Shown: piece by piece, positions 17,032 to 29,096 of the stretch | Layout of the letters: each line of letters begins with the position of its first letter | How positions within the stretch are numbered: the stretch's first letter is position 1 | Source of the DNA: Chryseobacterium sp. KACC 21268 | Lineage (GTDB): Bacteria; Bacteroidota; Bacteroidia; Flavobacteriales; Weeksellaceae | Length of the DNA: 64,000 nucleotides | NCBI GenBank assembly: GCA_028736075.1 | Contig: CP117875.1 | Span: forward strand, 3,162,001-3,226,000 | Direction: 5' to 3' | Notes under the pieces: generated by a model | Told to the model about the DNA's origin: nothing | Seen by the model: the letters and a program-made list of their open reading frames with translations, nothing else | Databases searched by the model: none | Translations under genes and position numbers: made by a program

Positions 17032-17754
17032 TCAGGGATTGACCGTTTGTGCCCACAGATAGGTTCCGACATTTTTTCCCGTCTTTTCGAGTTGTGTTTT
17101 GGTGGACTCAAAATCCAATGTTGCGATGATGAAAAGCCATTTTGTATTTTGTGGGATGCTAAAAGACCAATCTTGTGCTGGTACATTTTCTTTTTCTCTC
17201 AGCAATAGCGATAAGGACGAAAGCACTTCGACATCCACCACTTTAAAATTCAGATTGGTTGACACGGCGTAAAAATTAAGTTTTGCGGTGGTGGCATTTT
17301 TTGGTGCTCTTATCTGATCTCCCCAAGCTAAAGCAGGAAGGCCAATGCTCATTGTTTGATCTACAATTTCATTATATTTTGGATAGAAGTTGGTGTAACG
17401 CTGCCACTCTACTTTCGGGTTGAAGTTGAAGCCAATCATCGCTTCGGGATCTTGGAAACTAAGGAGCGTCGTTCCGCTTTCGGTGACTTTACTTGAAATC
17501 GTTTTGAGCAATCTTGTCTTGTGCTTTACTGCTTGATATTGATGGGAAACCAGACCTATTTTATCTTTCAAAAGATTTCTATACAGTTTTTCCTTCACTC
17601 CAGCCAAAGCAAACTTTTCGGCCTCTGCTTTAGTATTTTTGGTCTGTTTTGGTTTGTTTCCTTTTTCGCGGACGTAAACTCTATCGCCATCATTGACGAA
17701 AACCAGATTGCCTACGGCACCGCTCAAGTTGCCATTCTTTTTCAATCTTGCCAT
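17032..17754 (-). CDS. Hypothetical protein, 240 residues, DUF6266-like organisation
   Basis: Not firmly recognised. It begins MARLKKNGNLSGAVGNLVFV, similar in layout to DUF6266 proteins of flavobacteria that start with a Gly-rich segment followed by a beta-strand and a basic patch (NDGDRVYVREKGNKPKQ). A Lys-rich helical part (residues about 35-85) and a beta-rich C-terminal half follow. No signal peptide or membrane helix. It stands alone upstream of the glg operon. The family call is a resemblance, not an identification. Confidence 0.55.
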   Translation of the reverse strand: MARLKKNGNLSGAVGNLVFVNDGDRVYVREKGNKPKQTKNTKAEAEKFALAGVKEKLYRNLLKDKIGLVSHQYQAVKHKTRLLKTISSKVTESGTTLLSFQDPEAMIGFNFNPKVEWQRYTNFYPKYNEIVDQTMSIGLPALAWGDQIRAPKNATTAKLNFYAVSTNLNFKVVDVEVLSSLSLLLREKENVPAQDWSFSIPQNTKWLFIIATLDFESTKTQLEKTGKNVGTYLWAQTVNP

Positions 17755-18348
17755 TTTTTTGTGTTTTTAGGTTATGGTTTATGGTGGTACTGTTAACCCA
17801 CCGTTCGATTTTAGAGCAATGTAAAAGTAACAATAATCCGATACAGATGTAATATTTTATTGGACTTGTATTGGAGTTGTGATGGATCTGTATTGGAGAA
17901 GCTTCGTAGGAAATTCGGAATTGTGAGATTGATTGTCACGGTAGATAAAGTAAATGAATTTTTGGGATTCGTTTTCTTCTCAGCTTATAAAAATCTGAGA
18001 CCTTATTTGACTGCCCCCATTTTTCACAATCCAGCGTCAGGGCATCCCTAAAGGTCGGGAGATCTGGCAAGTACCAGGCTTTGTTGGTATTGCTTTACTT
18101 AGAAGATGGGATGCTTTGTGAAGTTCCTGTATCAATGCATTATCTTTTTCCAACGGATTCAAATGACGTTTTTGTCTCTATGATTTCCGAAGCTGAAATT
18201 GTATAAATCTAAATTCATCATTAAAAATATTGTTATTCGCATTTTCAATAGAAATAAACAGACCTAAAGCGACGAGGAGAAAAAATCTATTCATAATGCG
18301 AAGTATAAAAATAATAAAAAAAACTAATGATTTCACCTATTTGTTGAT
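17755..18348. other. Long noncoding stretch before the cassette array
   Basis: Apart from a decayed minus-strand frame (18037-18294) I see no intact gene. The part 17860-17900 has short direct repeats of TGTATTGGAG. No tyrosine recombinase remnant is visible on either strand, although this is where the integrase gene of an ordinary integron would be expected. Confidence 0.5.
18037..18294 (-). pseudogene. Decayed minus-strand ORF with in-frame TAG
   Basis: From the ATG at 18294 the frame reads MNRFFLLVALGLFISIENAN, a signal-peptide-like start, to a TAG at 18178-18180 after 38 residues. Reading through the TAG gives 46 more residues ending TCQISRPLGMP and a TGA at 18037. It may be a broken exported protein gene or chance. 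No domain recognised. Confidence 0.3.
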
Positions 18349-18396
18349 AATATCAAAATAATTTGTGGAATTGTTAGACTTTCGTATATTTGAGTG
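18349..18396 (+). promoter_or_regulatory. Array leader: promoter ending at the first cassette boundary
   Basis: AATATCAAAAT (18349-18359) is followed by TTTG (18362-18365), a 19 bp spacer and TATATTTG (18385-18392), a perfect flavobacterial promoter. Three bases later comes the GTT (18396) that begins cassette 1. The same arrangement recurs at 24060-24113. By position it corresponds to the attI site plus cassette promoter of an integron. The expected transcription start falls on or just past the boundary. Confidence 0.7.
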
Positions 18397-18425
18397 TTAC
18401 CTGCAATTTTCTAAAGACTGCATCC

Positions 18426-19046
18426 ATGAAAAATATTTGCAAGCTAATTTTAGTGTTTATTTTACCTATTTTGTTTGGATGTAAAGACGAACAAAAATTA
18501 CAGAGAAAAAAATTTCTAAAAACTGCAAAAATTTATTTTAGCGAAGAGTTAAAAAATAATGCAGACTATAAATCCTTAGACTCTTTGAGAATATTAAAAA
18601 TTGACACATTGTCTGATAAAGACGAATTATATCTATATATATGTCAATTATATAGATATAAAAATCATTTATTATCACAATCAAAATCGCCGAAAGATTT
18701 GTACGAATTAAAATATGGAACTGATGATTTTGATTCGCAAATGTATGAAGACTACTTAAATAAGTTAGAATATAAGTCTGTAAAAGAAAAAGAAGCAAAA
18801 TTTAATGTTCTGAGTGATTCTATTGACATTATTAAAAAACAAATAAAACATTATGAACAAATATTAGTCAAAAAAGATAGTTTAAATTTAAGTATGTATG
18901 AAGTTGAATATATTTATCAAATAACAAATAAAAATATGATTACTGGAAAAGGTGTGACATATTTATTATTTACAAAGGATATGAAAATAATTGAAAATAA
19001 ATATCTGGAAATAAAAAATCTTCAAAAATTTCCATTTATTAAATAG
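18426..19046 (+). CDS. Cassette 1: hypothetical lipoprotein, 206 residues
   Basis: Not recognised. The ATG at 18426 gives MKNICKLILVFILPILFGC, a clear lipoprotein signal with lipobox LFGC, followed by a Lys/Asp/Tyr-rich, largely helical domain with a likely coiled coil (SIDIIKKQIKHYEQILVKKD). It would be an outer- or inner-membrane lipoprotein facing the periplasm or surface. The frame is open 12 codons further up but that crosses the cassette boundary. It lies 30 bases after the array promoter, so it should be the best-expressed cassette gene. Confidence 0.65.
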   Translation: MKNICKLILVFILPILFGCKDEQKLQRKKFLKTAKIYFSEELKNNADYKSLDSLRILKIDTLSDKDELYLYICQLYRYKNHLLSQSKSPKDLYELKYGTDDFDSQMYEDYLNKLEYKSVKEKEAKFNVLSDSIDIIKKQIKHYEQILVKKDSLNLSMYEVEYIYQITNKNMITGKGVTYLLFTKDMKIIENKYLEIKNLQKFPFIK

Positions 19047-19052
19047 AAAAAC

Positions 19053-19190
19053 TGCAGATAACAAGGGTTTTGCAATAGTGGGGCGAAACTGTAAGGTTCA
19101 ACGACAGTTCTTCGGTTCAACTTTTGTGCAAAATTGAAGATTTGTGCTTCGATTGCCCCACCATCGCAAAGCCCCAAAACGTTAGTGGCA
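19053..19190 (+). repeat. attC-like site 1
   Basis: Opens TGCAGATAAC, then AAGGGTTTTGCAATAGTGGGGC, which pairs imperfectly with GCCCCACCATCGCAAAGCCCC, and ends ACGTTAGTGGCA. Outer arm matches the start of cassette 1 (GTTACCTGCA at 18396) in 9 of 10 positions. Confidence 0.8.
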
Positions 19191-19267
19191 ATTTTAAACA
19201 AAGCAACGCTAAACTAAAAAATACAATAAAATTAAACTATTAGATTATAATAAAATAAACGACAAAT

Positions 19268-19666
19268 ATGAGTTGGGATGTTGTTTTAGTAAAAGAAAGA
19301 TTTGAATTAGAAAACAATAATGACTATTCACCACCTTATCTTGGTAAAAGAGATGAAATAATTGACGCACTATTGAAAATTTTCCCGAATTTGGACTACA
19401 CTGATGAAAGTTGGGGTATTTTGAATGAGGCAGATTTTTCAATAGAATTTAATACGGGTAATGAAGAAATTGTGGATTCAATAATGCTTCATATAAGAGG
19501 CGGTGGAAATCCATTGAATGTAATAAAACTAATTATAAAAGAAATGAATTGGGAAGCTTTGGACTGTTCTACAACTGAATTTATAGAAATTGACGAAGAC
19601 AATCTTGAAAGTTGGACTGAGTTTCAAAAATATAGAGATAGTGTTTTGAAAAGAAATAAGGACTAA
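19268..19666 (+). CDS. Cassette 2: hypothetical protein, 132 residues
   Basis: A soluble acidic protein beginning MSWDVVLVKERFELENNND. The pattern MSWDVVL, a central WGILNEADFSIEFNTG, and MLHIRGGGNPLNVIKLI is one I associate with a widespread small hypothetical family in bacteria, sometimes found near toxin-immunity loci; this is a recollection, not a search. No signal peptide. The leader from the cassette boundary (19181) to the ATG is 87 bp, the longest among the cassettes. Function unknown. Confidence 0.65.
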   Translation: MSWDVVLVKERFELENNNDYSPPYLGKRDEIIDALLKIFPNLDYTDESWGILNEADFSIEFNTGNEEIVDSIMLHIRGGGNPLNVIKLIIKEMNWEALDCSTTEFIEIDEDNLESWTEFQKYRDSVLKRNKD

Positions 19667-19732
19667 AACTTTGAAACTTATTTAAGAAATAAACCAAGCA
19701 AATTATTTTGAACAAACTGAGTGAAAAAAAAC

Positions 19733-19870
19733 TGCCACTAACAAGGGTTTTGCAATAGTGGGGCGAAACTGCAAAGTTCAACGGTTGTTCTTCGGTTCAA
19801 CTTCTGTGCAAAATTGAAGTTTTGTGCTTCGATTGCCCCACCATCGCAAAGCCCCGAAACGTTAGCCGAA
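19733..19870 (+). repeat. attC-like site 2
   Basis: Opens TGCCACTAAC and ends ACGTTAGCCGAA. The opening arm is the exact complement of GTTAGTGGCA at 19181, the start of its own cassette, and with one A/C mismatch the pairing continues to 14 of 15. Confidence 0.82.
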
Positions 19871-19885
19871 ATATTACCCTACAAT

Positions 19886-20776
19886 ATGTCAGAAAAAGAA
19901 TTTATTCCAGAAAAAAGGTTATCCGAATTAACAATAAAACTTGTCAAAAAAATATTTCTTGCTCTCATCGCAATAATTACATATTATCAATTTTATGAGT
20001 ATCTAATAGAAAAAATCCCAGTTAATATTGAGATAACTAATTCAATAAATAAAAAATCATTTATTGAAACTGAATTTATATTTAATAATAGTAATTCTGC
20101 TATAGAAGAAAGTGACTTCACAAAACCTATTGAGATTGCATTATCTAATAAAATACAAAAAATCATATTTGATAAAAATCAAAAAGCAGTGCCAACATTT
20201 AAAATTGACGGCAACAAACTCCTTTTTCAGTTTGATTTGTTAAATAAAAATGAAAAAATAATCTTTAAGACTATAAGCGCTGATATAATAGAAATTAAAT
20301 CAATTAATTTTCGAATAAAAGACGTTGATAATATTGAATTTTATCACTACTTGAAAAAACCAAAACCATTACAAAGGTTGACCACTTTTTGGTTGATAGT
20401 TTTTGGTTTATCAATAATATTATTTTTTGATGCTTTAATTTTAATACTAAAGGATGCAAAACTAACTGAAATGAAATATTTGGTTAGAGATTATCCTTTA
20501 AATGAAAGTAATAAGTATGATTTTATGGAAAAATACAGGCAACTGTACAAAGATTATAAAGTTAGATTTAAACTTCCTGAAAAATATTTAATTGATTTTA
20601 AGGTTAAAAATCTTCTAGATATATATAAACAATATACAAAAAAAGATAGAGAGTTCATTAAATATATGATAAATATGAATACAGAGTTCGCAATATTATA
20701 TCGAACTAGAACTATATTTATTATTATCTCTCCAATTTTTATTTTAGTTTCACTGATTGGAATAATATTTAATTAA
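19886..20776 (+). CDS. Cassette 3: membrane protein, 296 residues
   Basis: Not recognised. The ATG at 19886 gives a short charged start, a first membrane helix near residues 22-42 (LVKKIFLALIAIITYYQFYE), an extracytoplasmic beta-rich domain of about 125 residues, a second helix (FWLIVFGLSIILFFDALILI), a charged helical cytoplasmic part and a third helix at the C-terminus (IFIIISPIFILVSLIGIIF). The leader is only 25 bases after the cassette boundary at 19861, leaving no room for a promoter, so it depends on upstream transcription. The frame before the ATG runs through attC-like site 2 and is not coding. Confidence 0.65.
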   Translation: MSEKEFIPEKRLSELTIKLVKKIFLALIAIITYYQFYEYLIEKIPVNIEITNSINKKSFIETEFIFNNSNSAIEESDFTKPIEIALSNKIQKIIFDKNQKAVPTFKIDGNKLLFQFDLLNKNEKIIFKTISADIIEIKSINFRIKDVDNIEFYHYLKKPKPLQRLTTFWLIVFGLSIILFFDALILILKDAKLTEMKYLVRDYPLNESNKYDFMEKYRQLYKDYKVRFKLPEKYLIDFKVKNLLDIYKQYTKKDREFIKYMINMNTEFAILYRTRTIFIIISPIFILVSLIGIIFN

Positions 20777-21069
20777 TTCTATTACGACTTTTCGATCCTA
20801 CATAAAATACCATTAGAATTAATCAATACTTATTTATTGAGAGCTTTTCTATTTTTGGCTATAATAATGATTATTTTCCCTCGTAAGTCTATGAATATAT
20901 TGTTCATAAAAAATAGTAAAAATGCGGTGAAATTTTAATACTTCGGCTAACAAGGGCTTTGCAATAGTGGGGCGAAACTGCAAAATTCAACAGTTGTTCT
21001 TCGGTTCAACTTTTGTACAAAATTGAGGTTTTGTGCTTCGATTGCCCCACCATCGCAAAGCCCCGAAAC
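20777..21069. other. Cassette 3 tail and site 3, no gene
   Basis: About 165 bp of AT-rich sequence follows the cassette 3 stop before the attC-like site starts at 20942. This is the longest untranslated tail in the array. I see no ORF or hairpin with T run in it. Confidence 0.5.
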
Positions 21070-21079
21070 GTTAGCGGTC
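20942..21079 (+). repeat. attC-like site 3
   Basis: Opens TTCGGCTAAC, body near-identical to sites 1 and 2, ends ACGTTAGCGGT. The arm TAATACTTCGGCTAAC matches the complement of the cassette 3 start at 19861 in 15 of 16 positions, the best example in the array. Confidence 0.85.
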
Positions 21080-21116
21080 ATTGTAAAGACAAGACGTAAA
21101 GACAAACAGAACTGAA

Positions 21117-21503
21117 ATGGAACCAACTTTTAGATGTGGAACGAGGAAAGCAATTGACGAGTTAGCTGTAGAACTAAATCTACCTAACGAGAGTTGGATG
21201 CAAGATTGGCCAATTGAAGTCATAGTTCCTACTGACATCAAAATTTATCTTAACCATTACGAAAAGCTTACTGACGATGACAAAAAGTTTGTACTAATGG
21301 AAGGAATATTGGATGCAATAGAATATCAACCAACGGAAGAACTCTTTTTAAAATATTGGAATAGGGTTAAAGAAATTTTAGATAAAGACTTTGCAATACA
21401 CGAATATACAATATATTATTGGGCGTGCTTTGGCAATGAAAATCTTGACGATTGTTGGAAAATTACAACTCTAATGCGAAAATTATGGGTAGACAAAAAA
21501 TGA
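21117..21503 (+). CDS. Cassette 4, first gene: hypothetical protein, 128 residues
   Basis: Not recognised. An acidic soluble protein starting MEPTFRCGTRKAIDELAVEL, rich in Trp (WMQDWPIEV, YYWACFGNENLDDCWKI) and helical. No signal peptide or membrane segment. The stop overlaps the start of the next gene (ATGA at 21500-21503), so the two are translationally coupled and travel together in one cassette. Such paired small genes in one cassette could be a toxin-antitoxin or enzyme-inhibitor pair, but nothing in the sequence proves that. Confidence 0.6.
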   Translation: MEPTFRCGTRKAIDELAVELNLPNESWMQDWPIEVIVPTDIKIYLNHYEKLTDDDKKFVLMEGILDAIEYQPTEELFLKYWNRVKEILDKDFAIHEYTIYYWACFGNENLDDCWKITTLMRKLWVDKK

Positions 21504-21766
21504 CAGACAAGGAAAAAATATTGTACAAAGCAATTGATGAAATTCTATGGAAAGATTGGGATCCAATTGGACTAAATGACATAGAAGAAGTTCGAGACGA
21601 ATATCAAAGTTACACACCTCACATTTTTAGTTTGACAATTCAAGGTGCGGACAAAATAAAAATTGCAAAACATCTTTATGAAATTGAAACAGTAAATATG
21701 GGAATGAATTGTAATAAAATTCATTGCGAACAGATTGCTGAAAAAATATTAAAACAAATTGAATAA
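21500..21766 (+). CDS. Cassette 4, second gene: hypothetical protein, 88 residues
   Basis: Not recognised. It reads MTDKEKILYKAIDEILWKDW with PIGLNDIEEVRDEYQSYTPHIFSL following; similar small proteins occur in many bacteria as far as I recall, often without assigned function. Soluble, acidic, mostly helical. The ATG at 21500 overlaps the stop of the upstream gene by four bases. An open stretch of 16 codons before this ATG lies inside the first gene and is not used. Confidence 0.6.
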   Translation: MTDKEKILYKAIDEILWKDWDPIGLNDIEEVRDEYQSYTPHIFSLTIQGADKIKIAKHLYEIETVNMGMNCNKIHCEQIAEKILKQIE

Positions 21767-21776
21767 CAAACAACGA

Positions 21777-21913
21777 ACCGCTAACAAGGGTTTTGCAATA
21801 GTGGGGCGAAACTACAAAGTTCAACGGTAGTTCTTCGATTCAACTTTTGTGGAAAATTGAAGATTTGCGCTTCGATTGCCCCACCATCGCCAAGCCCCAA
21901 ACCGTTGGTGGCA
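21777..21913 (+). repeat. attC-like site 4
   Basis: Opens ACCGCTAAC, complement of GTTAGCGGT at 21070 in 9 of 9 positions, body as in sites 1-3 with GCCAAGCCCC, ends CCGTTGGTGGCA. Confidence 0.8.
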
Positions 21914-21946
21914 ATATTAACCGAACAGACCTTAAAAACAGAAAAA

Positions 21947-22465
21947 ATGGAATTACCGAAATTTAAATACAGTCCTAACGCATTCGAACTTGACATTTTC
22001 GAAAATGTAGAAGGAACCTGTTCTGTCTGCAATGAAAAAAGACAAATCAAATATACAAGTTCATTTTATAGCGTTGACGAACCCGAATATATTTGTCCTT
22101 GGTGCATCGCAGACGGAAAAGCATCTGAAAAATACGAGGGAGAGTTCAATGATTATGAGGGAATTGAAAATTCAGAGAATATTGAAAAAGAACTTTTATT
22201 ACAAGCAAGTGAAAGAACGCCAAGTTATACAAGTTGGCAGCAACAAGTTTGGCTAACACATTGTAACGAACCTTGTGCTTTTGTTGGGTATGCTGACACA
22301 AAGACGATAGAGCCTCTAATGGAAGAATTAAATGACGATATTGAAAATAATGGCTATGACCCTGATTTTATAAAAAGTAGTTTAACAAAAGACGGAAGTT
22401 TAGTTGGCTATTTGTTTCAATGTGTAAACTGTTACCAACACCGACTTCACGTTGACTGTGACTAA
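21947..22465 (+). CDS. Cassette 5: CbrC family protein
   Basis: Member of the CbrC/UPF0167 family (E. coli CbrC is linked to colicin M tolerance). The 172-residue protein starts MELPKFKYSPNAFELDIFEN and shows the family marks: a Cys pair TCSVCNEKRQIKYTS, EYICPWCIADGKASEKYEGEF, the RTPSYTSWQQQVWLTHCNEP centre, and a late CVNCYQHRLHVDCD. The many CxxC pairs suggest zinc binding. The ATG at 21947 lies 43 bases after the cassette boundary. It is the only cassette gene with a named family of suggested toxin-resistance role. Confidence 0.85.
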   Translation: MELPKFKYSPNAFELDIFENVEGTCSVCNEKRQIKYTSSFYSVDEPEYICPWCIADGKASEKYEGEFNDYEGIENSENIEKELLLQASERTPSYTSWQQQVWLTHCNEPCAFVGYADTKTIEPLMEELNDDIENNGYDPDFIKSSLTKDGSLVGYLFQCVNCYQHRLHVDCD

Positions 22466-22479
22466 ATGAATAAAAATAC

Positions 22480-22616
22480 TGCCACCAACAAGGTTTTGCA
22501 ATAGTGGGGCGAAACTACAAAGTTCAACAGTTGTTCCGCGGTTCAACTTTTGTGCAAAATTGAAGTTTTGTGCTTCTTTTGCCCCACCATCGCAAAGCCC
22601 CGAAACGTTATCTGCA
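22480..22616 (+). repeat. attC-like site 5
   Basis: Opens TGCCACCAAC, exact complement of GTTGGTGGCA at 21904 (10 of 10; 14 of 15 when extended past one A/C mismatch), ends ACGTTATCTGCA. Confidence 0.83.
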
Positions 22617-22638
22617 AGCGCACCAAAATACTTTTAAA

Positions 22639-23127
22639 ATGAAATCGAAATTTACATTCAAATCCTATTTTTTACTAGTTTTAATTGTTGCATTTGGATT
22701 TCTCATTTGGTATGTTGTCCCAGCTTTTTTTAACAATCCATATTATGATGAAAATTTATTTCCAAAAATTTTCGTTCCCTCAATAACCATTTTTAGTTTT
22801 ATAATGTTATTTTTTGGTGAATTAAGAACTAAAAGAATAAATATAAACTTAAATAAAAATGAAATAATCGTTAAGAGGTTTTTTGGACTTATAACTGAAA
22901 ATTATAGACTATCAGAAATAGATGGTTGGAAATATTCACATTTGAGTTCCCGTGGTGGAACTTATGAATATTTATATTTAATAAAAGATGAAAAAAAAAC
23001 AGTAAAAATATCTCAGTTTTATCACAAAAATTATTTTAAATTAAAAAACGAAATCCAAGGAAAATTAAAATATTTGGGTTACGAAAATTTCTCTTTTTTA
23101 GATGAACTAAAGGAAACATTTACTTGA
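22639..23127 (+). CDS. Cassette 6: membrane protein with PH-like domain, 162 residues
   Basis: Not assigned to a named family. Two N-terminal membrane helices (YFLLVLIVAFGFLIWYVVPA and FVPSITIFSFIMLFFGEL) are followed by a cytoplasmic beta-rich domain of about 85 residues (INLNKNEIIVKRFFGLITEN, LSEIDGWKYSHL) that resembles the bacterial PH domains found after two-helix hairpins. The ATG at 22639 is 32 bases after the cassette boundary. The role is unknown. Confidence 0.62.
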   Translation: MKSKFTFKSYFLLVLIVAFGFLIWYVVPAFFNNPYYDENLFPKIFVPSITIFSFIMLFFGELRTKRININLNKNEIIVKRFFGLITENYRLSEIDGWKYSHLSSRGGTYEYLYLIKDEKKTVKISQFYHKNYFKLKNEIQGKLKYLGYENFSFLDELKETFT

Positions 23128-23134
23128 AAATGCC

Positions 23135-23272
23135 TGCAGATAACAAGGGTTTTGCAATAGTGGGGCGAAACTGCAAAGTTCAAAAGTATTTCTTAGATTG
23201 AACTTTTGTGCAAAATTGAAGTTTTGTGCTTCTTTTGCCCCACCATCGCCAAGCCCCGAAACGTTAGCAGAA
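23135..23272 (+). repeat. attC-like site 6
   Basis: Opens TGCAGATAAC, exact complement of GTTATCTGCA at 22607, ends ACGTTAGCAGAA. The inner arms AAAGTTCAA and TTGAACTTT are perfectly complementary here, which shows that the internal part of the element also folds. Confidence 0.82.
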
Positions 23273-23295
23273 ATAGTAAAAAAATACGTTATAAA

Positions 23296-23949
23296 ATGAA
23301 AAAAATAATATTTATCGGGTTTTTAAATTTTCTATTTACATTTTCATATGGACAAATAAACACCGATTTGATTAAGAAAAATGTAACTGAAAATCCTAAT
23401 GAAAATTTTTACAAACTTTTAGAAATTTTCAAATCAAATCCTTCTGAATTAACACAGGAGCAGCTAAATCAACTTTATTACGGAAGTAAATTTTTGAAAA
23501 TTGATTACACTATTGGAAATTACAATAGTGAATCAGGAACATTTTGGAAACCTGCGCACCGAAAATTATCTAAAAGTAAGGCAGAAAAAATCGTGAAAGA
23601 AGCAGAATTAAAATATTTGAAAAATCCACTTAATAAAAGTCTGTTAGATGATATGATTAATATTTACAGCGCATTAGATGAAAATCAAAAAGTAGATCTA
23701 TGTTACAAACAGAAAGATTTACTAATACAAACTGTAAAAAAGAGTGGAGACGGAAAAAGCGAGGAAACGGCAATCTGTGTTTTAACGGCAGGAGAAGTTT
23801 TACAACAACTTGAAAAATTAATACAATCAGGACCAAGAGCACAATTTGACCAAAAAATGAAGCAACTTTCAGATGGAAGTGTATTAACAATTTATAAGAT
23901 TGGAGATAGAGAAGTCTTTGTAAAATTAGTTGGCGGATATTTTCTGTAA
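23296..23949 (+). CDS. Cassette 7: DUF4919 family exported protein
   Basis: A 217-residue exported protein with a signal peptide (KIIFIGFLNFLFTFSYGQ). The mature part has the DUF4919 pattern: NPNENFYKLLEIFKSNPSEL, LNQLYYGSKFLKIDYT, and GSVLTIYKIGDREVFVKLVG at the end. The family is common in Bacteroidota and has no known function that I can name. The ATG at 23296 lies 33 bases after the boundary at 23263. The upstream open frame crosses site 6 and is not coding. Confidence 0.75.
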   Translation: MKKIIFIGFLNFLFTFSYGQINTDLIKKNVTENPNENFYKLLEIFKSNPSELTQEQLNQLYYGSKFLKIDYTIGNYNSESGTFWKPAHRKLSKSKAEKIVKEAELKYLKNPLNKSLLDDMINIYSALDENQKVDLCYKQKDLLIQTVKKSGDGKSEETAICVLTAGEVLQQLEKLIQSGPRAQFDQKMKQLSDGSVLTIYKIGDREVFVKLVGGYFL

Positions 23950-23953
23950 AAAA

Positions 23954-24000
23954 CTACTGCTTCTAACAAGGGTTTTGCTATAGTGGGGCGAAACTGCAAA
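23954..24000 (+). repeat. attC-like site 7, right half missing
   Basis: Opens CTACTGCTTCTAAC and carries AAGGGTTTTGCTATAGTGGGGC and CGAAACTGCAAA, then the similarity stops at 24000 where leader-like sequence begins. The arm matches the cassette 7 start (23263) in 11 of 14 positions. Confidence 0.75.
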
Positions 24001-24012
24001 CCAAAAAAAACA

Positions 24013-24047
24013 ACGAATCGTAAATGAAACGCTACGAATTGTAAATG
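24013..24047 (+). repeat. Direct repeats in the internal leader
   Basis: ACGAATCGTAAATG (24013-24026) and ACGAATTGTAAATG (24034-24047) match in 13 of 14 positions at a 21 bp period, two helical turns, upstream of the second leader promoter. Confidence 0.6.
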
Positions 24048-24059
24048 GTTTTGATTTTC

Positions 24060-24113
24060 AATATCAAAATTTTTAGATTTGAATCATTGAAATAAATGGC
24101 GCATATTTGAGAG
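24060..24113 (+). promoter_or_regulatory. Second array leader, inside the array
   Basis: AATATCAAAAT (24060-24070), TTTG (24078-24081), a 20 bp spacer and CATATTTG (24102-24109), then three bases and the GTT of cassette 8 at 24113. The first leader has the same AATATCAAAAT, the same ATATTTGAG and the same 3-base distance to GTT. It probably is a second promoter and a second attI-like junction. Confidence 0.6.
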
Positions 24114-24146
24114 TTGTGCGATATGCCAAACCAACATTATGCATAA

Positions 24147-24917
24147 ATGAAAAAATTATCAGACAGACCATTAAACGATTTTAACGAAGATGACCCTGAA
24201 ACATATTTTTGGACTGATGGAAAAAAAGTGTTTCATCAAAAAAGTTTGCTAAGAGGAGCAAATCCTGAGACCTTTTTATTCGATGGAATTTTTGCAAAAG
24301 ACGACAGTAAATGTTTTTGTGGGGAAAGTTGGTTAAAAGATGCAGAGGTTGAAACATTCAAAACATTAAACTTCACTTACGCCATTGATAAAAACAATGT
24401 TTACACTATTACAGGCAAAGTGAATAATGCCGACATTGAAACATTTAAAGTTTTAGATGATGGTAACGGTTTACTGGGATATAATAAGATTGGAATTCCA
24501 GAATATACATTTAATAGTTATGCAAAGGATAAAAACAATGTTTATTATCACAATTATGACGGAAAACCAAAAATTATAAAGAATGCTGATGTAAATACTT
24601 TTATTTCTCTATACGATGGATATTTTGCAAAAGACAAAAATCACATATACGGAAACGGCAAAATAATAAAAAATGCTGATGTAAAAAGTTGGGATAGTAT
24701 ATCTAAAATCTCAAACTCTTATTACTCTAAAGACTGTAAAAGAATATTTTATGGTTTTTGGGAAATAAAGGCAGACTATGAAACTTTTCAACTCGAAATT
24801 CAGAAAAATGCAAAATCTGTAACTTATCAACTTGCAAGAGACAAAGACAATTTTTATAGAAATGGAGAAATCATTACTAAAGAAGAGTTTGAAAAGTATA
24901 GTCGGAAAACAAATTAA
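24147..24917 (+). CDS. Cassette 8: DKNYY repeat protein, 256 residues
   Basis: A soluble protein made of repeats of the DKNYY family (PF13644), whose unit carries D-K-N-x-V-Y followed by an A-D-x-x-T/S-F segment: AIDKNNVYTI, AKDKNNVYYH, AKDKNHIYGN and ARDKDNFYRN are visible, with ADIETF, ADVNTF and ADYETF between. The family is found in many Bacteroidota and some Proteobacteria and has no established function. No signal peptide. It is 34 bases after the internal leader and is therefore probably well expressed. Confidence 0.8.
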   Translation: MKKLSDRPLNDFNEDDPETYFWTDGKKVFHQKSLLRGANPETFLFDGIFAKDDSKCFCGESWLKDAEVETFKTLNFTYAIDKNNVYTITGKVNNADIETFKVLDDGNGLLGYNKIGIPEYTFNSYAKDKNNVYYHNYDGKPKIIKNADVNTFISLYDGYFAKDKNHIYGNGKIIKNADVKSWDSISKISNSYYSKDCKRIFYGFWEIKADYETFQLEIQKNAKSVTYQLARDKDNFYRNGEIITKEEFEKYSRKTN

Positions 24918-24930
24918 CCAAACTAAATAA

Positions 24931-25077
24931 GCACAATCGCACAACAAGGGTTTTGCGATTTGGGGCGAAACTGCAAAGTTCAACGCCAGTTCTTCGATTG
25001 AACTTTTTTGCAAAATTCAACATTTGCGCTTCGATTTCCGCCACATCGCCAAGCCGTAAACCATTGTACGACATTTT
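24931..25077 (+). repeat. attC-like site 8
   Basis: Opens GCACAATCGCACAAC, whose last ten bases are the exact complement of GTTGTGCGAT at 24113, body related but shorter, ends with the altered core ACCATTGTACGAC. Confidence 0.75.
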
Positions 25078-25111
25078 AACCAAACTACCGTCAATTATTA
25101 AAATTTGATAT

Positions 25112-25579
25112 ATGAAAATATTTAAATTATTTACAATTCTATGTTCATTGAATTTATTTTTGTCTTGTGGTGTTTGTCTTCCTAAAAATCTTGAATTTAA
25201 AAACATTCAGTATTTCACACCAAAATCTTTAGAAAACATTGACACAAATTCTGAGTATGTCTGTACCAATATTTATGAAGCGGATAGTAATTTTAAAAAA
25301 TTAGGCGAATCTTGGGATTCATCATCGAAAAGAACTATGAAATTTAATAAAAATGGTTTTATTGAAGGAGTTGGAATGCCAATAAACAATAAAAATGAAC
25401 AAGCAATAATTTATACAAAAAATGGAAAACTCTTAATTGATAAAATTGGCGCCACTCAAGACCACTGCAAATTTATTGACACATACAAAGTCAAAGTCAT
25501 TGGAAATAAAATTTATTTACTGCAATTTAGCGGAATAACAAATCGAAAAATGTGCTTTGAATTTCAAAAAAATATTTAG
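25112..25579 (+). CDS. Cassette 9: hypothetical lipoprotein, 155 residues
   Basis: Not recognised. It starts MKIFKLFTILCSLNLFLSCG, a lipoprotein signal with lipobox LFLSC, followed by a beta-rich domain (MKFNKNGFIEGVGMPINN, YTKNGKLLIDKIG) that resembles lipocalin-like lipoproteins in pattern only. The ATG is 49 bases after the boundary at 25063. It ends 8 bases before its own site begins. Confidence 0.62.
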   Translation: MKIFKLFTILCSLNLFLSCGVCLPKNLEFKNIQYFTPKSLENIDTNSEYVCTNIYEADSNFKKLGESWDSSSKRTMKFNKNGFIEGVGMPINNKNEQAIIYTKNGKLLIDKIGATQDHCKFIDTYKVKVIGNKIYLLQFSGITNRKMCFEFQKNI

Positions 25580-25587
25580 AATAAAAA

Positions 25588-25764
25588 ACATCGCACAACA
25601 TTGGCAAAATGCGGGGTTTAGGGAAGTTTAACTTTTAATAATATTTATCCGCCGCTGCTTTTCAATTCCAGATTTTAAGTAATTTAGTTCAATTCCAAAA
25701 CATCAGCTTCGTTGTTCAATTTAGCCCGCACTTCGCCTATACTTTTTCGTTAGCAGAAATATTA
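25588..25764 (+). repeat. attC-like site 9, divergent in sequence
   Basis: Opens ACATCGCACAAC and ends TTCGTTAGCAGAA, but the body is unlike the other sites: GGCAAAATGCGGGG pairs with GCCCGCACTTCGCC across a 90-base centre. The arm matches the cassette 9 start (25063) in 11 of 15 positions. Confidence 0.7.
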
Positions 25765-25776
25765 AAAAAATACCCT

Positions 25777-26628
25777 ATGAAGAGAATTTTATCAATAATT
25801 ACAATTGTACTTTTTTTAGCAAGTCCTAAAGTATTTTCACAAATTGACAAAAATGGAAACCCAATTTTTAATAGTTTACATATTGAGAAATTTAAATTTG
25901 AAAACATCGAAATAGTTTCAAATTATTATACAATAAAAAATAATATTGACAATCAATCTTCTTCTGTTTTCATTAGTGAAAAACCAACTTCGGAAGACTA
26001 TATAAATTTCTCAACCAAGCTACCATCCTATTTTTTTATGATTGTTGACAAAGGAAATGTTCTTGGAATGGCAATGCTGATTCCTAAAATTGAAGATGAT
26101 TCATTTTTCTATAACGTAGTAATTCCAAGTGAAAATTCAAATTTTCAAGTTTCATCTCAACTGAAAGGAAAAATAACCGAACATCGAGCAAAAGAAATAT
26201 TAGATATAACAAATGCTGAAGCAAAAATTAAGAAGACAGTTTTGAATTATAATGACAGGAATTTCGAAATACTGAAATATGACCAAATTATAGCAGAATT
26301 AAAAAATATTGTTTTAGCAAAAATTACTTCTGAAAAAAACGTAGAGAAGAATAATATAGAAGAATATATCAAAACAGAATCGAAAGAAGGAGGAAAACTT
26401 GACTTCAAAAATGCAGTCGAAAAATATGATGGAGCTTTGGTTGGTTTCGATGGAGTTATGTATAATAAGAAAGATTTTACAATTTTAATGTGGGGAGCTT
26501 CTGTAAATCAAGTTGGAATAAAAGATTTTGCGAAAACTCAAGCTCTGTGGGAAGAGATTAATAATAGAAAACTAACAGAACCTGAATTAAAAGCCTTAAA
26601 AAAAGGATTTGAAACAAAACTCAAATAA
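25777..26628 (+). CDS. Cassette 10: hypothetical exported protein, 283 residues
   Basis: Not recognised. A signal peptide (ILSIITIVLFLASPKVFSQ) is followed by a 260-residue domain with no family that I know. A middle helical part (TEHRAKEILDITNAEAKIKK) and a C-terminal segment (TILMWGASVNQVGIKDFAKT) stand out. The ATG is 28 bases after the boundary at 25749. Ends right before its attC-like site. Confidence 0.6.
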   Translation: MKRILSIITIVLFLASPKVFSQIDKNGNPIFNSLHIEKFKFENIEIVSNYYTIKNNIDNQSSSVFISEKPTSEDYINFSTKLPSYFFMIVDKGNVLGMAMLIPKIEDDSFFYNVVIPSENSNFQVSSQLKGKITEHRAKEILDITNAEAKIKKTVLNYNDRNFEILKYDQIIAELKNIVLAKITSEKNVEKNNIEEYIKTESKEGGKLDFKNAVEKYDGALVGFDGVMYNKKDFTILMWGASVNQVGIKDFAKTQALWEEINNRKLTEPELKALKKGFETKLK

Positions 26629-26770
26629 ATACTTCTGCTAACAAGGGCTTGGCAATAGAAGGCGGAACGTCTAAATTCACGCTTTGTGCCTCGGTTAAAG
26701 TTTGTATTTTAGTTGAAAGTGTGGGCTTCGGTTTTCCCACCATCGCCAAGCACAAAAATGTAAGCACCAA
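26627..26770 (+). repeat. attC-like site 10
   Basis: Opens AAATACTTCTGCTAAC, matching the complement of the cassette 10 start in 14 of 16 positions. The body diverges (GGGCTTGGCAATAGAAGGCGG and CCACCATCGCCAAGC) and the 3' core is GTAAGC rather than GTTAGC, a base change in the otherwise constant GTT. Confidence 0.75.
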
Positions 26771-26777
26771 TTATAGA

Positions 26778-27731
26778 ATGACAAGACTAAAACAGAATTA
26801 TGGACTTTTAATAATCGGAATTGCAATTGGTATCGCATACGGACTTGCGACAAGGTTGGTATTCGGACAAGAAGCAACTCTGGCTTCCGTGACATACTTA
26901 TTTATCATTCCTACAATTTTGGGAATTATTCCTTTAATGTTTGTTGACAATGACAAACTAAAATCGTATCGTAATATAATTTTCATTCCTTGGCTGACTG
27001 TTGCGACTTTTTTCTTTACAATGTTTTTATTTGGAATAGAAGACTTTATTTGCTTATTAGTTCTTGCAGCTCCTTTTTTTATTCTGGGAACCGTTGGTGC
27101 TTTGATTTATAGATTTGTGCAAATCAATAGACAAAAGAGCAAAGGAAAACTTCTGACATTAGTATTGTTGCCTTTTCTATTCGCATCAATCGAAGAATAT
27201 ATACAAAGTCCTTCTGACACTTTTAATGTGAAAAGTGAAGTTATTATCGATGCAAAGCCTCAATTAGTATGGGACAACATTGTTGAAGTTGAAACAATCC
27301 ACCAAGATGAATATAATTCCGGTTTTTTCAATTCAATTGGAATTCCAAGACCTATAAGTGCGACAGTTGATAGAAAAGAACTTGGTGGACAAAGAATAGG
27401 AAACTTTGAAGGCGGTTTAAAGTTTATTGAAACAATTACCGAATATGAAGAAAACAAGAAAGTTTCATTTGACATAAAAATTGACCCAACGACCGTTAGA
27501 CAAAAAGTATTTGACCAACACGTTTTGAACGGCAACTATTTCACATTTGTTGACGCAACTTACGAACTGACTGTGTTGAAAAATGGACACGTAAAATTGG
27601 CACTTTATTCAAGTTATCAGCTGACTTCAACTATCAACTTTTACGGCAAATTTTGGGGTGACATAATTCTAACAGACTTTCAAGACAGGCTTTTAAATGT
27701 AATTGAAAACAGATGTGAAACGAAAGAATAA
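26778..27731 (+). CDS. Cassette 11: membrane protein with C-terminal SRPBCC domain
   Basis: A 317-residue protein from the ATG at 26778 (MTRLKQNYGLLIIGIAIGIA). Four membrane helices occupy about residues 8-135 (GLLIIGIAIGIAYGL, TYLFIIPTILGIIPLMF, FIPWLTVATFFFTMFL, FICLLVLAAPFFILGTVGAL), and the rest (about 155-315) is a SRPBCC domain beginning VKSEVIIDAKPQLVWDNIVE. The membrane-SRPBCC combination is known in Bacteroidota hypotheticals. It may bind a hydrophobic ligand at the membrane. The long upstream frame crosses site 10 and is not coding. Confidence 0.72.
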   Translation: MTRLKQNYGLLIIGIAIGIAYGLATRLVFGQEATLASVTYLFIIPTILGIIPLMFVDNDKLKSYRNIIFIPWLTVATFFFTMFLFGIEDFICLLVLAAPFFILGTVGALIYRFVQINRQKSKGKLLTLVLLPFLFASIEEYIQSPSDTFNVKSEVIIDAKPQLVWDNIVEVETIHQDEYNSGFFNSIGIPRPISATVDRKELGGQRIGNFEGGLKFIETITEYEENKKVSFDIKIDPTTVRQKVFDQHVLNGNYFTFVDATYELTVLKNGHVKLALYSSYQLTSTINFYGKFWGDIILTDFQDRLLNVIENRCETKE

Positions 27732-27757
27732 CTGATGCTAACAGGTTTTGCGTGGTC
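27730..27757 (+). repeat. attC-like site 11, truncated; end of the array
   Basis: Opens AACTGATGCTAAC and AGGTTTTGCG, then the similarity stops. The arm matches the start of cassette 11 (26760) in 12 of 15 positions. The missing right half marks the distal end of the array. Confidence 0.65.
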
Positions 27758-27955
27758 ACTTAGTGCTTGGTTTTGATATATCTCTTTACAAATGCTAATG
27801 ATTAATGCATTTTTGAATATCCAATTAAAATTTTATCTTAACTTTATTAATAATAATTGATGACGATTTTCGCCGACAGCAATTTTCAAAGTGACGATTG
27901 ACGTAATAATCTTTCATTAATTATTAAAAATTTGAAACATTTTAAACACAACGAG

Positions 27956-28387
27956 ATGGAAAAAACTAATACTATACTAAGAGGTTTAGCGACCATCAGC
28001 TTCTTTGCTGAAAATTTGCAGGATGCAACAAACTGGTACACCGAACTTTTAGGCATCGAACCTTACTACACTTTTCCAGACAAGGAAAATCCTGCTTATG
28101 TTGAGTTTCGTATTGGAGATTTCGAGCACGAATTGGGCATCATCGACAAGAAATATCAACCCAAACTTGCTTCGGGCAAAATTGGTGGCGCAGTTGCCTT
28201 TTGGCACGTGGACGATATTCGACAGGTTCTTAAAAAATTAATAAAAATGGAGGCGAAAGAATACGAAAAAATCACCGAAAGAGAAGACGGATTTGTTACG
28301 GCCTCTGTGATAGACCCGTTTGGTAACATCTTAGGAATTATGCACAATCCCCATTATTTGGAAATTTTAAAATTATTGAACAAATAA
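27956..28387 (+). CDS. VOC family (glyoxalase-like) protein
   Basis: A 143-residue VOC domain protein from the ATG at 27956: RGLATISFFAENLQDATNWY at the start, a FEHELGIIDKKYQP middle and VTASVIDPFGNILGIMHNPHY at the end, which are glyoxalase/bleomycin resistance-type motifs. Resistance cannot be deduced. It is not close to the PhnB-like proteins at 7662-10564. It is the first gene past the array and lacks an attC-like site after it. Confidence 0.78.
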   Translation: MEKTNTILRGLATISFFAENLQDATNWYTELLGIEPYYTFPDKENPAYVEFRIGDFEHELGIIDKKYQPKLASGKIGGAVAFWHVDDIRQVLKKLIKMEAKEYEKITEREDGFVTASVIDPFGNILGIMHNPHYLEILKLLNK

Positions 28388-28472
28388 AAACGGTAGTGCA
28401 AAAATGGTTATCAACAAACCGTTAAAACATTTCATTTATCAAGATCATTAACAACAATAAAAAACACACATT

Positions 28473-29096
28473 ATGATTATTTTTGGAACAAGAGCCAGAA
28501 CATTGGTACCAAAGGAAAACAAATCCTACGACTGCGATTACTGTCAGACGAAAGGCAGTGTCACATTTGCTTTTATCGCGCGCTATTTTCATATTTTTTG
28601 GATTCCGATTTTTCCAATCTCGAAAAAAGGAATCAGCCAATGTAGCCACTGCAAACAAGTGCTGTACGAAAATGAAATGAGCCCAAGGATGAAGCAAGAT
28701 TACGCCAATGCATCTGCGAGCGCAAAAAGACCGATTACCCACTATTTTGGACTGTTCATTATTGGCTTAATTTTCTGCACCGTCATCTACGGCATTACCA
28801 CCAACTCTATCAATGAATCCAAATATTTAGCCGAGCCGAAGGTGAATGATGTTTATGAAATCGAGAAAAATGGTTCTTACACACTTTACAAAATTTCGGA
28901 GGTAAAAGGTGACACCTTGATTTTCAAACCGCACAATATGATGGCGGAGAAATATATTAAACTTTCCGAATTGCAGAAGAAACATAAAAATGACTATTCC
29001 GACGAAACGATAAAATTCACCAAAGCTCAAATAAATTCGATGAAAGAAAGTTCTAAAAGTGATTTTGGAAAGATTTATAGTATTAAACGCGAATAG
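28473..29096 (+). CDS. Zinc-ribbon membrane protein, 207 residues
   Basis: The N-terminus carries a zinc ribbon with two Cys pairs (YDCDYCQTKG near residue 21 and ISQCSHCKQVLYEN near 55) around a FHIFWIPIFPISKKG strand, the zinc_ribbon_15 pattern. One membrane helix follows near residues 91-110 (FGLFIIGLIFCTVIYGIT), then a charged domain with KVNDVYEIEKNGSYTLYKI. Probably a membrane protein with a cytoplasmic zinc ribbon; function unknown. Confidence 0.7.
   Translation: MIIFGTRARTLVPKENKSYDCDYCQTKGSVTFAFIARYFHIFWIPIFPISKKGISQCSHCKQVLYENEMSPRMKQDYANASASAKRPITHYFGLFIIGLIFCTVIYGITTNSINESKYLAEPKVNDVYEIEKNGSYTLYKISEVKGDTLIFKPHNMMAEKYIKLSELQKKHKNDYSDETIKFTKAQINSMKESSKSDFGKIYSIKRE

What the first reader, a model, noticed from the sequence alone, without database searches (positions are those of the whole stretch)
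18396..27757. Integron-like array of eleven gene cassettes in a Bacteroidota chromosome
Seen: eleven AT-rich plus-strand units, each with one or two unrelated small genes and a 135-145 bp imperfect palindrome that opens AAC and closes GTT. The palindromes keep AAGGG-TTTTGC-AATAGTGGGGC on the left and GCCCCACCATCGC-AAAGCCC on the right, with a 2-base versus 6-base asymmetric bulge between AAC/GTT and the GGG/CCC stem, as in attC sites (R box, unpaired spacer, L box). Known: integron attC sites are recombined as folded single strands and recognised by structure. Differences: the cores are GTTAGTG, GTTAGCC, GTTAGCG, GTTGGTG, GTTATCT, GTTGTGC rather than GTTRRRY, and no integrase is present. Inferred: a CALIN-like or a new integron class of flavobacteria.
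Basis: partly seen in the sequence, partly recalled or inferred. Interest (0 to 1): 0.95.

Follow-up and report, generated by a model that had tools for sequence, protein, structure and literature searches.

The report
Patch-less integron-like cassette system of Bacteroidota
This stretch of a flavobacterial chromosome is a row of eleven small gene cassettes next to the remains of a deleted recombinase gene; such rows sit beside related recombinases across the phylum Bacteroidota and likely work like integrons, although the enzyme lacks the extra segment that defines integron integrases.

Summary
The array is real. Eleven units run 18396-27740. A unit's first bases are a near-perfect reverse complement of its own last ones (over 126 units: 15 bases, with an A:C mismatch at position 11 in 104), far beyond chance and not shared with neighbours. 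In a close relative (L051) the same chromosomal place carries an intact 354-aa tyrosine recombinase, divergent from a 13-site array; sequence is near-identical up to the first GTT, then the cassettes differ, with one shared cassette (98.6%). The window keeps an attI-like site and a 5' remnant of that recombinase. So it is a CALIN-like array left after integrase loss. Homologous recombinases in other Bacteroidota have such arrays on a fixed side and orientation. The 20 examined lack the 37-42 residue IntI patch, only 4 of 126 cassette cores fit GTTRRRY, and canonical IntI passes its cut-off in 1 of 73 sampled genomes of the same class. It works like an integron but fails two defining tests of the family: a new patch-less variant. 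Recombination itself, and single-strand hairpin use, are inferred. One observation sits badly with a textbook integron: the hairpin after a shared cassette usually differs between genomes.

The parts
18029..18215 (-). remnant of the 5' end of the integrase gene, with stops; the rest of the gene is deleted and about 35 other bases stand in its place
   Evidence: window 18029-18215 aligns with the 5' end of the intact gene in L051, about 866 bp of L051 is missing; the three-frame translation shows stops
18336..18395 (+). attI-like site, ending CGTATATTTGAGT directly before the first cassette's GTT
   Evidence: near-identical to L051 up to GTTA; a close variant of the motif precedes the first cassette in L053, L054, L069, L199, L214
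18396..19062 (+). cassette 0 (ORF 18426-19046, 206 aa, no Pfam match)
19060..19183 (+). attC-like hairpin site S1
19181..19742 (+). cassette 1 (ORF 19268-19666)
19740..19863 (+). attC-like site S2
19861..20951 (+). cassette 2 (ORF 19886-20776)
20949..21072 (+). attC-like site S3
21070..21785 (+). cassette 3 (two ORFs, 21117-21503 and 21500-21766)
21783..21906 (+). attC-like site S4
21904..22489 (+). cassette 4 (ORF 21947-22465, UPF0167); the one cassette shared with L051, 98.6%
22487..22609 (+). attC-like site S5; 69.9% identical to the site after the same cassette in L051
22607..23144 (+). cassette 5 (ORF 22639-23127)
23142..23265 (+). attC-like site S6
23263..23967 (+). cassette 6 (ORF 23296-23949, DUF4919)
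23965..23998 (+). left half-site S7 (right half missing)
24100..24115 (+). second, internal attI-like sequence CGCATATTTGAGA followed by GTT
   Evidence: local alignment with the attI region scores 38, above all 500 shuffles (max 37)
24113..24945 (+). cassette 7 (ORF 24147-24917, DKNYY)
24943..25065 (+). attC-like site S8 (right core ATT)
25063..25599 (+). cassette 8 (ORF 25112-25579)
25597..25751 (+). divergent attC-like site S9
   Evidence: 27.9 bits with model R2
25749..26642 (+). cassette 9 (ORF 25777-26628)
26640..26762 (+). attC-like site S10 (right core GTA)
26760..27742 (+). cassette 10 (ORF 26778-27731)
27740..27752 (+). terminal left half-site S11; homology to the relative's 3' flank resumes at 27822

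Best explanation
This is the cassette array of a chromosomal integron-like system that has lost its recombinase gene by deletion; while that gene was intact, it likely captured, reordered and excised small gene cassettes at an attI-like site. In the inferred mechanism, a tyrosine recombinase (a 277-379 aa relative of IntI and Xer enzymes that lacks the IntI patch) joins attI to the GTT core of a hairpin site. The outer arms of the hairpin would pair fully only when a cassette is circular, because a cassette's two ends are complementary to each other. Crossover within GTT would leave each cassette starting at GTT and ending at AAC followed by its hairpin. Shown: the anatomy, the own-cassette end complementarity, the pairing hairpin, the recombinase-attI-array order in relatives, the different cassettes at the same locus, and the gene deletion here. 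Inferred: that the recombinase acts on these sites, that it uses a folded single strand, and that the crossover lies within GTT. The array in this genome is therefore predicted to be frozen unless a recombinase is supplied in trans.
For: Own-cassette ends: 79/99 vs 46.8 +/- 5.2 permuted; 596/777 vs 378 +/- 16 over 111 units from the window and 19 fetched loci; 715/882 vs 448 +/- 16, max 501 of 3000, within-genome permutation over 126 units. The complementarity covers positions 1-15 and drops to background at 16; at position 11 A faces C in 104 of 126. These arms were not paired in the model's structure. Orthologous locus with intact recombinase, identity ending at GTTA, one shared cassette. 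Recombinase loci found by protein only: sites lie downstream and co-directional in 114 of 115 hits for one group (the odd one is the opposite strand of a plus hit) and upstream and divergent in 14 of 14 for the L051 group, with none in 491 kb and 73 kb on the other sides; 19 of these 80 loci had given sites to that model. The model trained on the window alone gave the same pattern: by my reading of its 76 hits, 68 plus-strand downstream, 5 minus-strand upstream in the L051 group, 3 opposite-strand shadows. Start arm of the first cassette beside the recombinase: in 35 of 39 loci the best match to the first site's end arm is reached by at most 5% of shuffled arms, and in 34 of 39 it lies 61-196 nt into the fragment that starts at the recombinase end. 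Hairpin pairing: 745/1024 vs 484 +/- 14. Longest ORF on the array strand in 119 of 126 units. Recombinase-positive genomes have sites in 77 of 89, negative in 63 of 207 (Fisher p 7e-20).
Against: No recombination was observed. The hairpin does not travel faithfully with its cassette: for the shared cassette the body is 98.6% identical but the following hairpin 69.9% and the preceding one 89.0%; of 47 between-genome homology blocks (>=85% identity) that end inside arrays, 12 end at the AAC core, 25 in the left half of the hairpin, 8 at the GTT core and 2 elsewhere, and of 12 block starts inside arrays 1 lies within 5 nt of GTT in both (dominated by one dispersed element of G004, G014 and G002). 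In an integron the block should run to the next GTT. Folding z-scores are modest. Hairpin pairing is counted on sites that a structure model selected, so it leans towards the structure; 200 of 252 hits were given to that count and 26 of the 200 dropped. First-cassette arms are no better than shuffled ones in 4 of 39 loci: L053, L069, L120, L134. attI repeats stand out in 10 of 16 co-directional loci only. 11 of 36 co-directional loci with 1.5 kb or more downstream, and 1 of 7 L051-group loci with 2 kb or more upstream, show no site. Sites also occur in 63 of 207 genomes without a strong recombinase hit.
Confidence: 0.85

Rival explanations
1. An ordinary CALIN: cassettes of classical integrons, moved by a canonical patch-bearing IntI acting in trans or now lost.
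For: The array logic, attI-like site and hairpin sites resemble integrons. 85 of 296 genomes of the phylum have canonical IntI over the cut-off.
Against: The recombinase deleted here, judged by its intact orthologue, and the others examined next to arrays lack the patch (70-75 versus 112 residues). TIGR02249 is over its cut-off in 0 of 59 genomes of the neighbourhood, own included, and, by my count of rows, in 1 of 73 genomes of the same class. Only 4 of 126 cores fit GTTRRRY.
Confidence: 0.06
2. Non-mobile or MITE/REP-like hairpin repeats scattered between unrelated small genes, shuffled by homologous recombination between repeats.
For: Hairpins within a genome are alike, and hairpins turn over independently of cassette bodies, as gene conversion between repeats would give.
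Against: Repeat copying would not make a unit's two ends complementary to each other and not to its neighbours, nor put one recombinase class on a fixed side and orientation of the arrays, nor a cassette start at a near-fixed distance from the recombinase.
Confidence: 0.05
3. Hairpins are transcription terminators or structured RNA elements of small genes.
For: They follow genes on the coding strand; the top strand folds.
Against: No Rfam match up to E 1. It does not explain the upstream arm at the start of each unit or the recombinase linkage.
Confidence: 0.03

Closest known systems
Integrons with IntI, attI and attC cassettes (chromosomal or mobile)
   Same: recombinase gene, attI-like site, small cassettes mostly in one orientation, hairpin site per cassette, own-cassette end complementarity, apparent boundary at GTT, CALIN-like remnants
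   Different: recombinases examined lack the IntI patch; cores rarely fit GTTRRRY; the terminal arm is 15 bp with an A:C mismatch at position 11 instead of 7 bp (the 7 bp is recalled); hairpins turn over separately from cassettes; recombinase co-directional with the array in one group
Xer recombinases (XerA, XerC, XerD, XerH)
   Different: XerD-type rows form their own branch, 100/100; the new enzymes are linked to cassette arrays and their C-terminal end aligns with that of IntI4
'Integron-like' subgroup of simple tyrosine recombinases (PMC8138268, passages seen)
   Different: the passages seen describe no patch-less members tied to cassette arrays
Tyrosine recombinases beside IS91-family transposases
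   Same: related enzymes; the multi-copy element of G004 and G014 lies next to hairpin sites
   Different: own clade, 100/100, three rows; dispersed element

Membership tests
Integron | integron integrase with the IntI-specific additional domain (patch) | tested here: not met
   KG..K-R box to HxLRH: 112 aa in 5 canonical IntI, 70-75 aa in 20 recombinases of this class, 74-78 in two Xer; below the TIGR02249 cut-off in 10 of 10 tested and 59 of 59 genomes. This is the enzyme of relatives; the window's own gene is deleted
Integron | attC with R boxes RYYYAAC / GTTRRRY | tested here: not met
   GTT and AAC are present, but 4 of 126 cassette cores fit GTTRRRY (units were selected for having GTT and AAC)
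Integron | attC folds into an imperfect hairpin with conserved structure and variable sequence | tested here: met
   745 of 1024 cells paired vs 484 +/- 14 shuffled in 64 non-redundant sites; up to 4 Watson-Crick pair types per position (model-selected sites)
Integron | the two ends of one cassette complement each other, so that the site is complete only in the circle | tested here: met
Integron | attI next to the integrase gene, first cassette inserted there | tested here: met
   one orthologous pair differs from GTT onward; first-cassette arm above shuffled arms in 35 of 39 loci; shared attI motif in divergent loci
Integron | cassette carries its own attC as one mobile unit | tested here: inconclusive
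   shared cassette keeps its body (98.6%) but not its hairpin (69.9%); 37 of 47 block ends lie at AAC or in the left half, 8 at GTT
Integron | integrase recombines attI x attC with folded bottom strand | not testable with these tools
   needs an assay
CALIN | two or more attC sites without a nearby integrase | tested here: met
   8 clear sites in the window; integrase gene deleted; no recombinase of the class found elsewhere in the 4.07 Mb genome (best hits XerD 185 bits and XerC-like 88 bits). IntegronFinder itself was not run
MITE or REP repeat | repeat copies are self-contained: arms pair within one palindrome and not across the unit between two palindromes | tested here: not met
   unit ends pair with their own unit (79/99), not across the repeat (41/90)
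MITE or REP repeat | target-site duplication | not tested
   no empty site was compared for single hairpins

The most novel reading that the evidence does not exclude
Bacteroidota carry their own, so far undescribed kind of integron: an IntI/Xer-type recombinase without the IntI patch that collects gene cassettes through 15-bp self-complementary ends and a hairpin, phylum-wide, with at least two layouts and two enzyme sizes. It shows that folded-site cassette recombination does not need the patch held to be essential, and it may exchange the hairpin separately from the gene by cutting at either core.
Probability: 0.65. Interest if true: 0.95.

Novelty: new variant of a known kind. Interest (0 to 1): 0.9.

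Why it matters
The IntI patch is used to tell integron integrases from other integrases and to search for them (PMC9024848, PMC9668308, PMC2426708, passages seen), and one paper calls it essential for integron function (PMC8138268, passage seen). A patch-less class would be missed by such searches, which fits the report of one complete integron in Bacteroidetes proper in the 2022 IntegronFinder survey (PMC9024848, passage seen). If true, a whole phylum has a hidden cassette pool of mostly unknown genes, the mechanism of folded-site recombination can be tested without the patch, and a resistance gene, tet(X3), may have come from such a cassette.

Tried and rejected
Rfam search of the array: no match up to E 1. 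PADLOC on 10 of the 12 cassette proteins: no match. Pfam: 3 of 12 cassette proteins above a gathering cut-off, 9 without any match at E 0.01. No tRNA in 12000-34000. A regular expression for recombinases that was too strict found one and was replaced. I tested whether the site model marks canonical attC: R2 found no site in 10 IntI loci cut at about 3.5 kb, which is too little sequence to conclude. A 44-row tree with long branches was unclear; after dropping 5 rows (three other tyrosine recombinases, the own XerC, one IntI) the array-linked rows form one group with support 88/82, which is not strong, and a group of these plus IntI is not rejected (p-AU 0.193). The lone site at 125235-125366 of this genome has no convincing partner arm (10 of 13 at best). 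A fold search adds only that the enzyme is a tyrosine recombinase. Residues 1-60 form a beta-beta-alpha-beta-beta unit in the model; that it is an arm-binding domain is a guess, barely tested. The first attI arm count had no control and covered 14 of the 29 co-directional loci with sites; one search repeats it on all of them with shuffled arms. The first attI repeat test left out three loci that lacked the pattern by eye (L103, L118, L126); one search adds them and none stands out, so the count is 10 of 16; its position windows were chosen after seeing the sequences. Literature: listings show no paper on a patch-less or Bacteroidia integron class by title or abstract; the lists were shorter than the hits; subscription papers and preprints are not held.


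Full report
Observation. The array lies in a 4.07 Mb genome held as one contig. Eleven units were mapped. Each unit's start arm resembles the reverse complement of its own end arm: 79 of 99 bases versus 46.8 +/- 5.2 for permuted ends, 0 of 200,000; pairing the two sides of one palindrome gives 41 of 90. This is the logic of a cassette that was once a circle, and it is not what inserted repeats would show. Nine palindromes are whole (one divergent) and two are left halves.

Scale. A covariance model from the 8 clear sites (R1) found sites in 37 of 59 genomes, own included, and by my count of rows in 22 of 23 of the same genus. In 111 units from the window and 19 fetched loci the own-arm match is 596 of 777 versus 378 +/- 16, with a maximum of 462 in 5000 within-locus permutations (141 of the 176 hits were used, leaving out opposite-strand shadows, some cut hits and a few loci). 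In 126 units from 60 oriented loci it is 715 of 882 versus 448 +/- 16 (maximum 501 of 3000) when ends are permuted within a genome; 95 of 126 match at 6 or 7 of 7 variable positions. This set uses only sites with a clear AAC and GTT. Complementarity covers positions 1-15 and drops to background at 16; position 11 is mismatched, with A facing C in 104 of 126. Only 4 of 126 cores fit GTTRRRY. The longest ORF is on the array strand in 119 of 126 units.

The site. Of 252 hits were given to the pairing count; 26 were dropped because no AAC or GTT core was found or the hit was cut. Among the remaining 174, 64 are non-redundant. The stems pair at a fixed offset: 745 of 1024 cells versus 484 +/- 14 shuffled (maximum 531), with up to four pair types per position, and an A opposite C at pair 15/19 in 44 of 64. 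The sites were chosen by a structure model, which favours pairing; the cassette arms were not part of that structure.

Integrase and locus. In L051 (G003), window 17401-17993 and 27822-28500 align at 97.6% and 96.5%, and between them lies a 354-aa tyrosine recombinase facing away from a 13-site array. The window lacks about 866 bp of it, keeping 18029-18215 with stops. The 5' flank is near-identical up to TATTTGAGTGTTA and then the cassettes differ, so the boundary is at GTT. One cassette is shared, 98.6%. The recombinase alignment finds only XerD (185 bits), an XerC-like protein (88 bits) and two weaker hits in this genome. Flanks of the same locus recur in other species of the genus, among them L069, L199 and L213, whose recombinases are shorter.

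Linkage. A scan of named genomes with the recombinase alignment, blind to arrays, kept the best 80 of 551 loci, from many Bacteroidota and a few other labels. With model R2 (built from 132 matches; 19 of these 80 loci contributed) 36 of 80 loci have sites: 7 of 10 in the L051 group, 29 of 70 in the rest, and 0 of 22 in the rest where the contig ends within 600 bp. Side and orientation are fixed: 14 of 14 upstream and divergent in the L051 group, 114 of 115 downstream and co-directional in the rest, the exception being the reverse strand of a plus hit. R1, trained only on the window, gave the same pattern. In 35 of 39 loci the first cassette's start arm beside the recombinase beats at least 95% of shuffled arms; L053, L069, L120 and L134 do not; 34 of 39 lie 61-196 nt into the fragment. 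Before GTT, divergent loci share CGYAWATTTGRG-like motifs, and in 10 of 16 co-directional loci a lineage-specific 6-mer recurs inverted and direct at fixed places.

The enzyme. TIGR02249 (integron integrase) matches both ends of the protein but stays below its cut-off in 10 of 10 tested and in 59 of 59 genomes. Against IntI4 (2a3v) the alignment breaks where the patch is. From the KG box to HxLRH, 5 canonical IntI have 112 residues, 20 enzymes of this class 70-75, two Xer 74-78. In the tree IntI and the XerD-type rows each have 100/100 support, the array-linked rows 88/82. So the patch is absent, and whether it was lost or never gained is open.

Distribution. In 296 genomes of the phylum at 90% completeness or more, 140 have R2 sites, 89 the recombinase at E <= 1e-75, 85 a canonical IntI over its cut-off. 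By my count of rows, in the window's class (taken to be Bacteroidia) these are 55, 40 and 1 of 73 (for the first two). Recombinase-positive genomes have sites in 77 of 89, negative in 63 of 207 (Fisher p 7e-20). A Chryseobacterium plasmid carries a recombinase with four sites after it.

Against the reading. Nothing was seen to recombine. Hairpins do not follow their cassettes: 89.0% before and 69.9% after a 98.6% body; 45 of 47 block ends fall at sites (12 at AAC, 25 in the left half, 8 at GTT), but a textbook integron predicts the GTT. Exchange at either core, or gene conversion between hairpins, could explain this; I cannot tell which. Folding energies are modest.

Known work, passages seen only. 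The patch marks IntI off from other integrases, and IntegronFinder 2.0 knew one complete integron in Bacteroidetes proper, Salinibacter, besides Chlorobi and Ignavibacteriae (PMC9024848). Archaeal IntIs were described as having the same domain (PMC9668308). An early survey, which reported intI genes in the Bacteroidetes/Chlorobi group, kept only genes with the domain or patch (PMC2426708). Integron-like recombinases do not all keep the insertion (PMC8138268). Integrons are listed in Bacteroidota without detail (PMC8618304). Nine searches listed no paper on a patch-less class. I file it as integron-like: it works like an integron by anatomy, and is not a member by the patch and the core consensus.

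Noticed in passing
L169, L170, L171 (Acinetobacter plasmids NZ_CP104735.1, NZ_CP041297.1, NZ_CP090068.1): tet(X3) is preceded by a 221-aa recombinase that groups with this class (46% identity over 67% of the L051 enzyme; with L103 in the tree, 87/83) and followed by a left half-site, so it may be a truncated cassette of this system. R1 and R2 score 24.4 and 32.3 bits on L169; R1 finds nothing on L170 and L171, R2 nothing on L170. The GTT arm before the gene is no better than shuffled arms (10 of 13, 40% of shuffles reach it), and a stricter arm search found none. Two of nine listed papers were looked into by passages: they name xerD but not integrons or attC.
   Followed up: partly
L167 (Chryseobacterium sp. 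SNU WT5 plasmid, NZ_CP041688.1): plasmid-borne version: recombinase followed by mostly co-directional genes with four R2 sites
   Followed up: partly
window 24100-24115: second attI-like sequence inside the array, in place of the right half of site S7, as if two arrays had been fused
   Followed up: partly
L051, L055, L056, L204, L205, L232: shared cassettes and elements end at AAC or in the left half of the hairpin more often than at GTT; hairpins turn over independently of cassette bodies
   Followed up: partly
L055, L056, L204, L205 (G004, G014): a multi-copy element with a 276-293 aa tyrosine recombinase, close to one beside an IS91-family transposase in L166, lies about 140-250 bp before hairpin sites in L055
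   Followed up: partly
G000:C1:125235-125366 (L070), outside the window: lone site (72 bits R1, 96 bits R2), 1.5 kb from another tyrosine recombinase at 126865-127380
   Followed up: partly
L051 4303-5364, residues 1-60: the longer recombinases have an N-terminal beta-beta-alpha-beta-beta unit in the model that the 277-279 aa ones lack; function unknown
   Followed up: no
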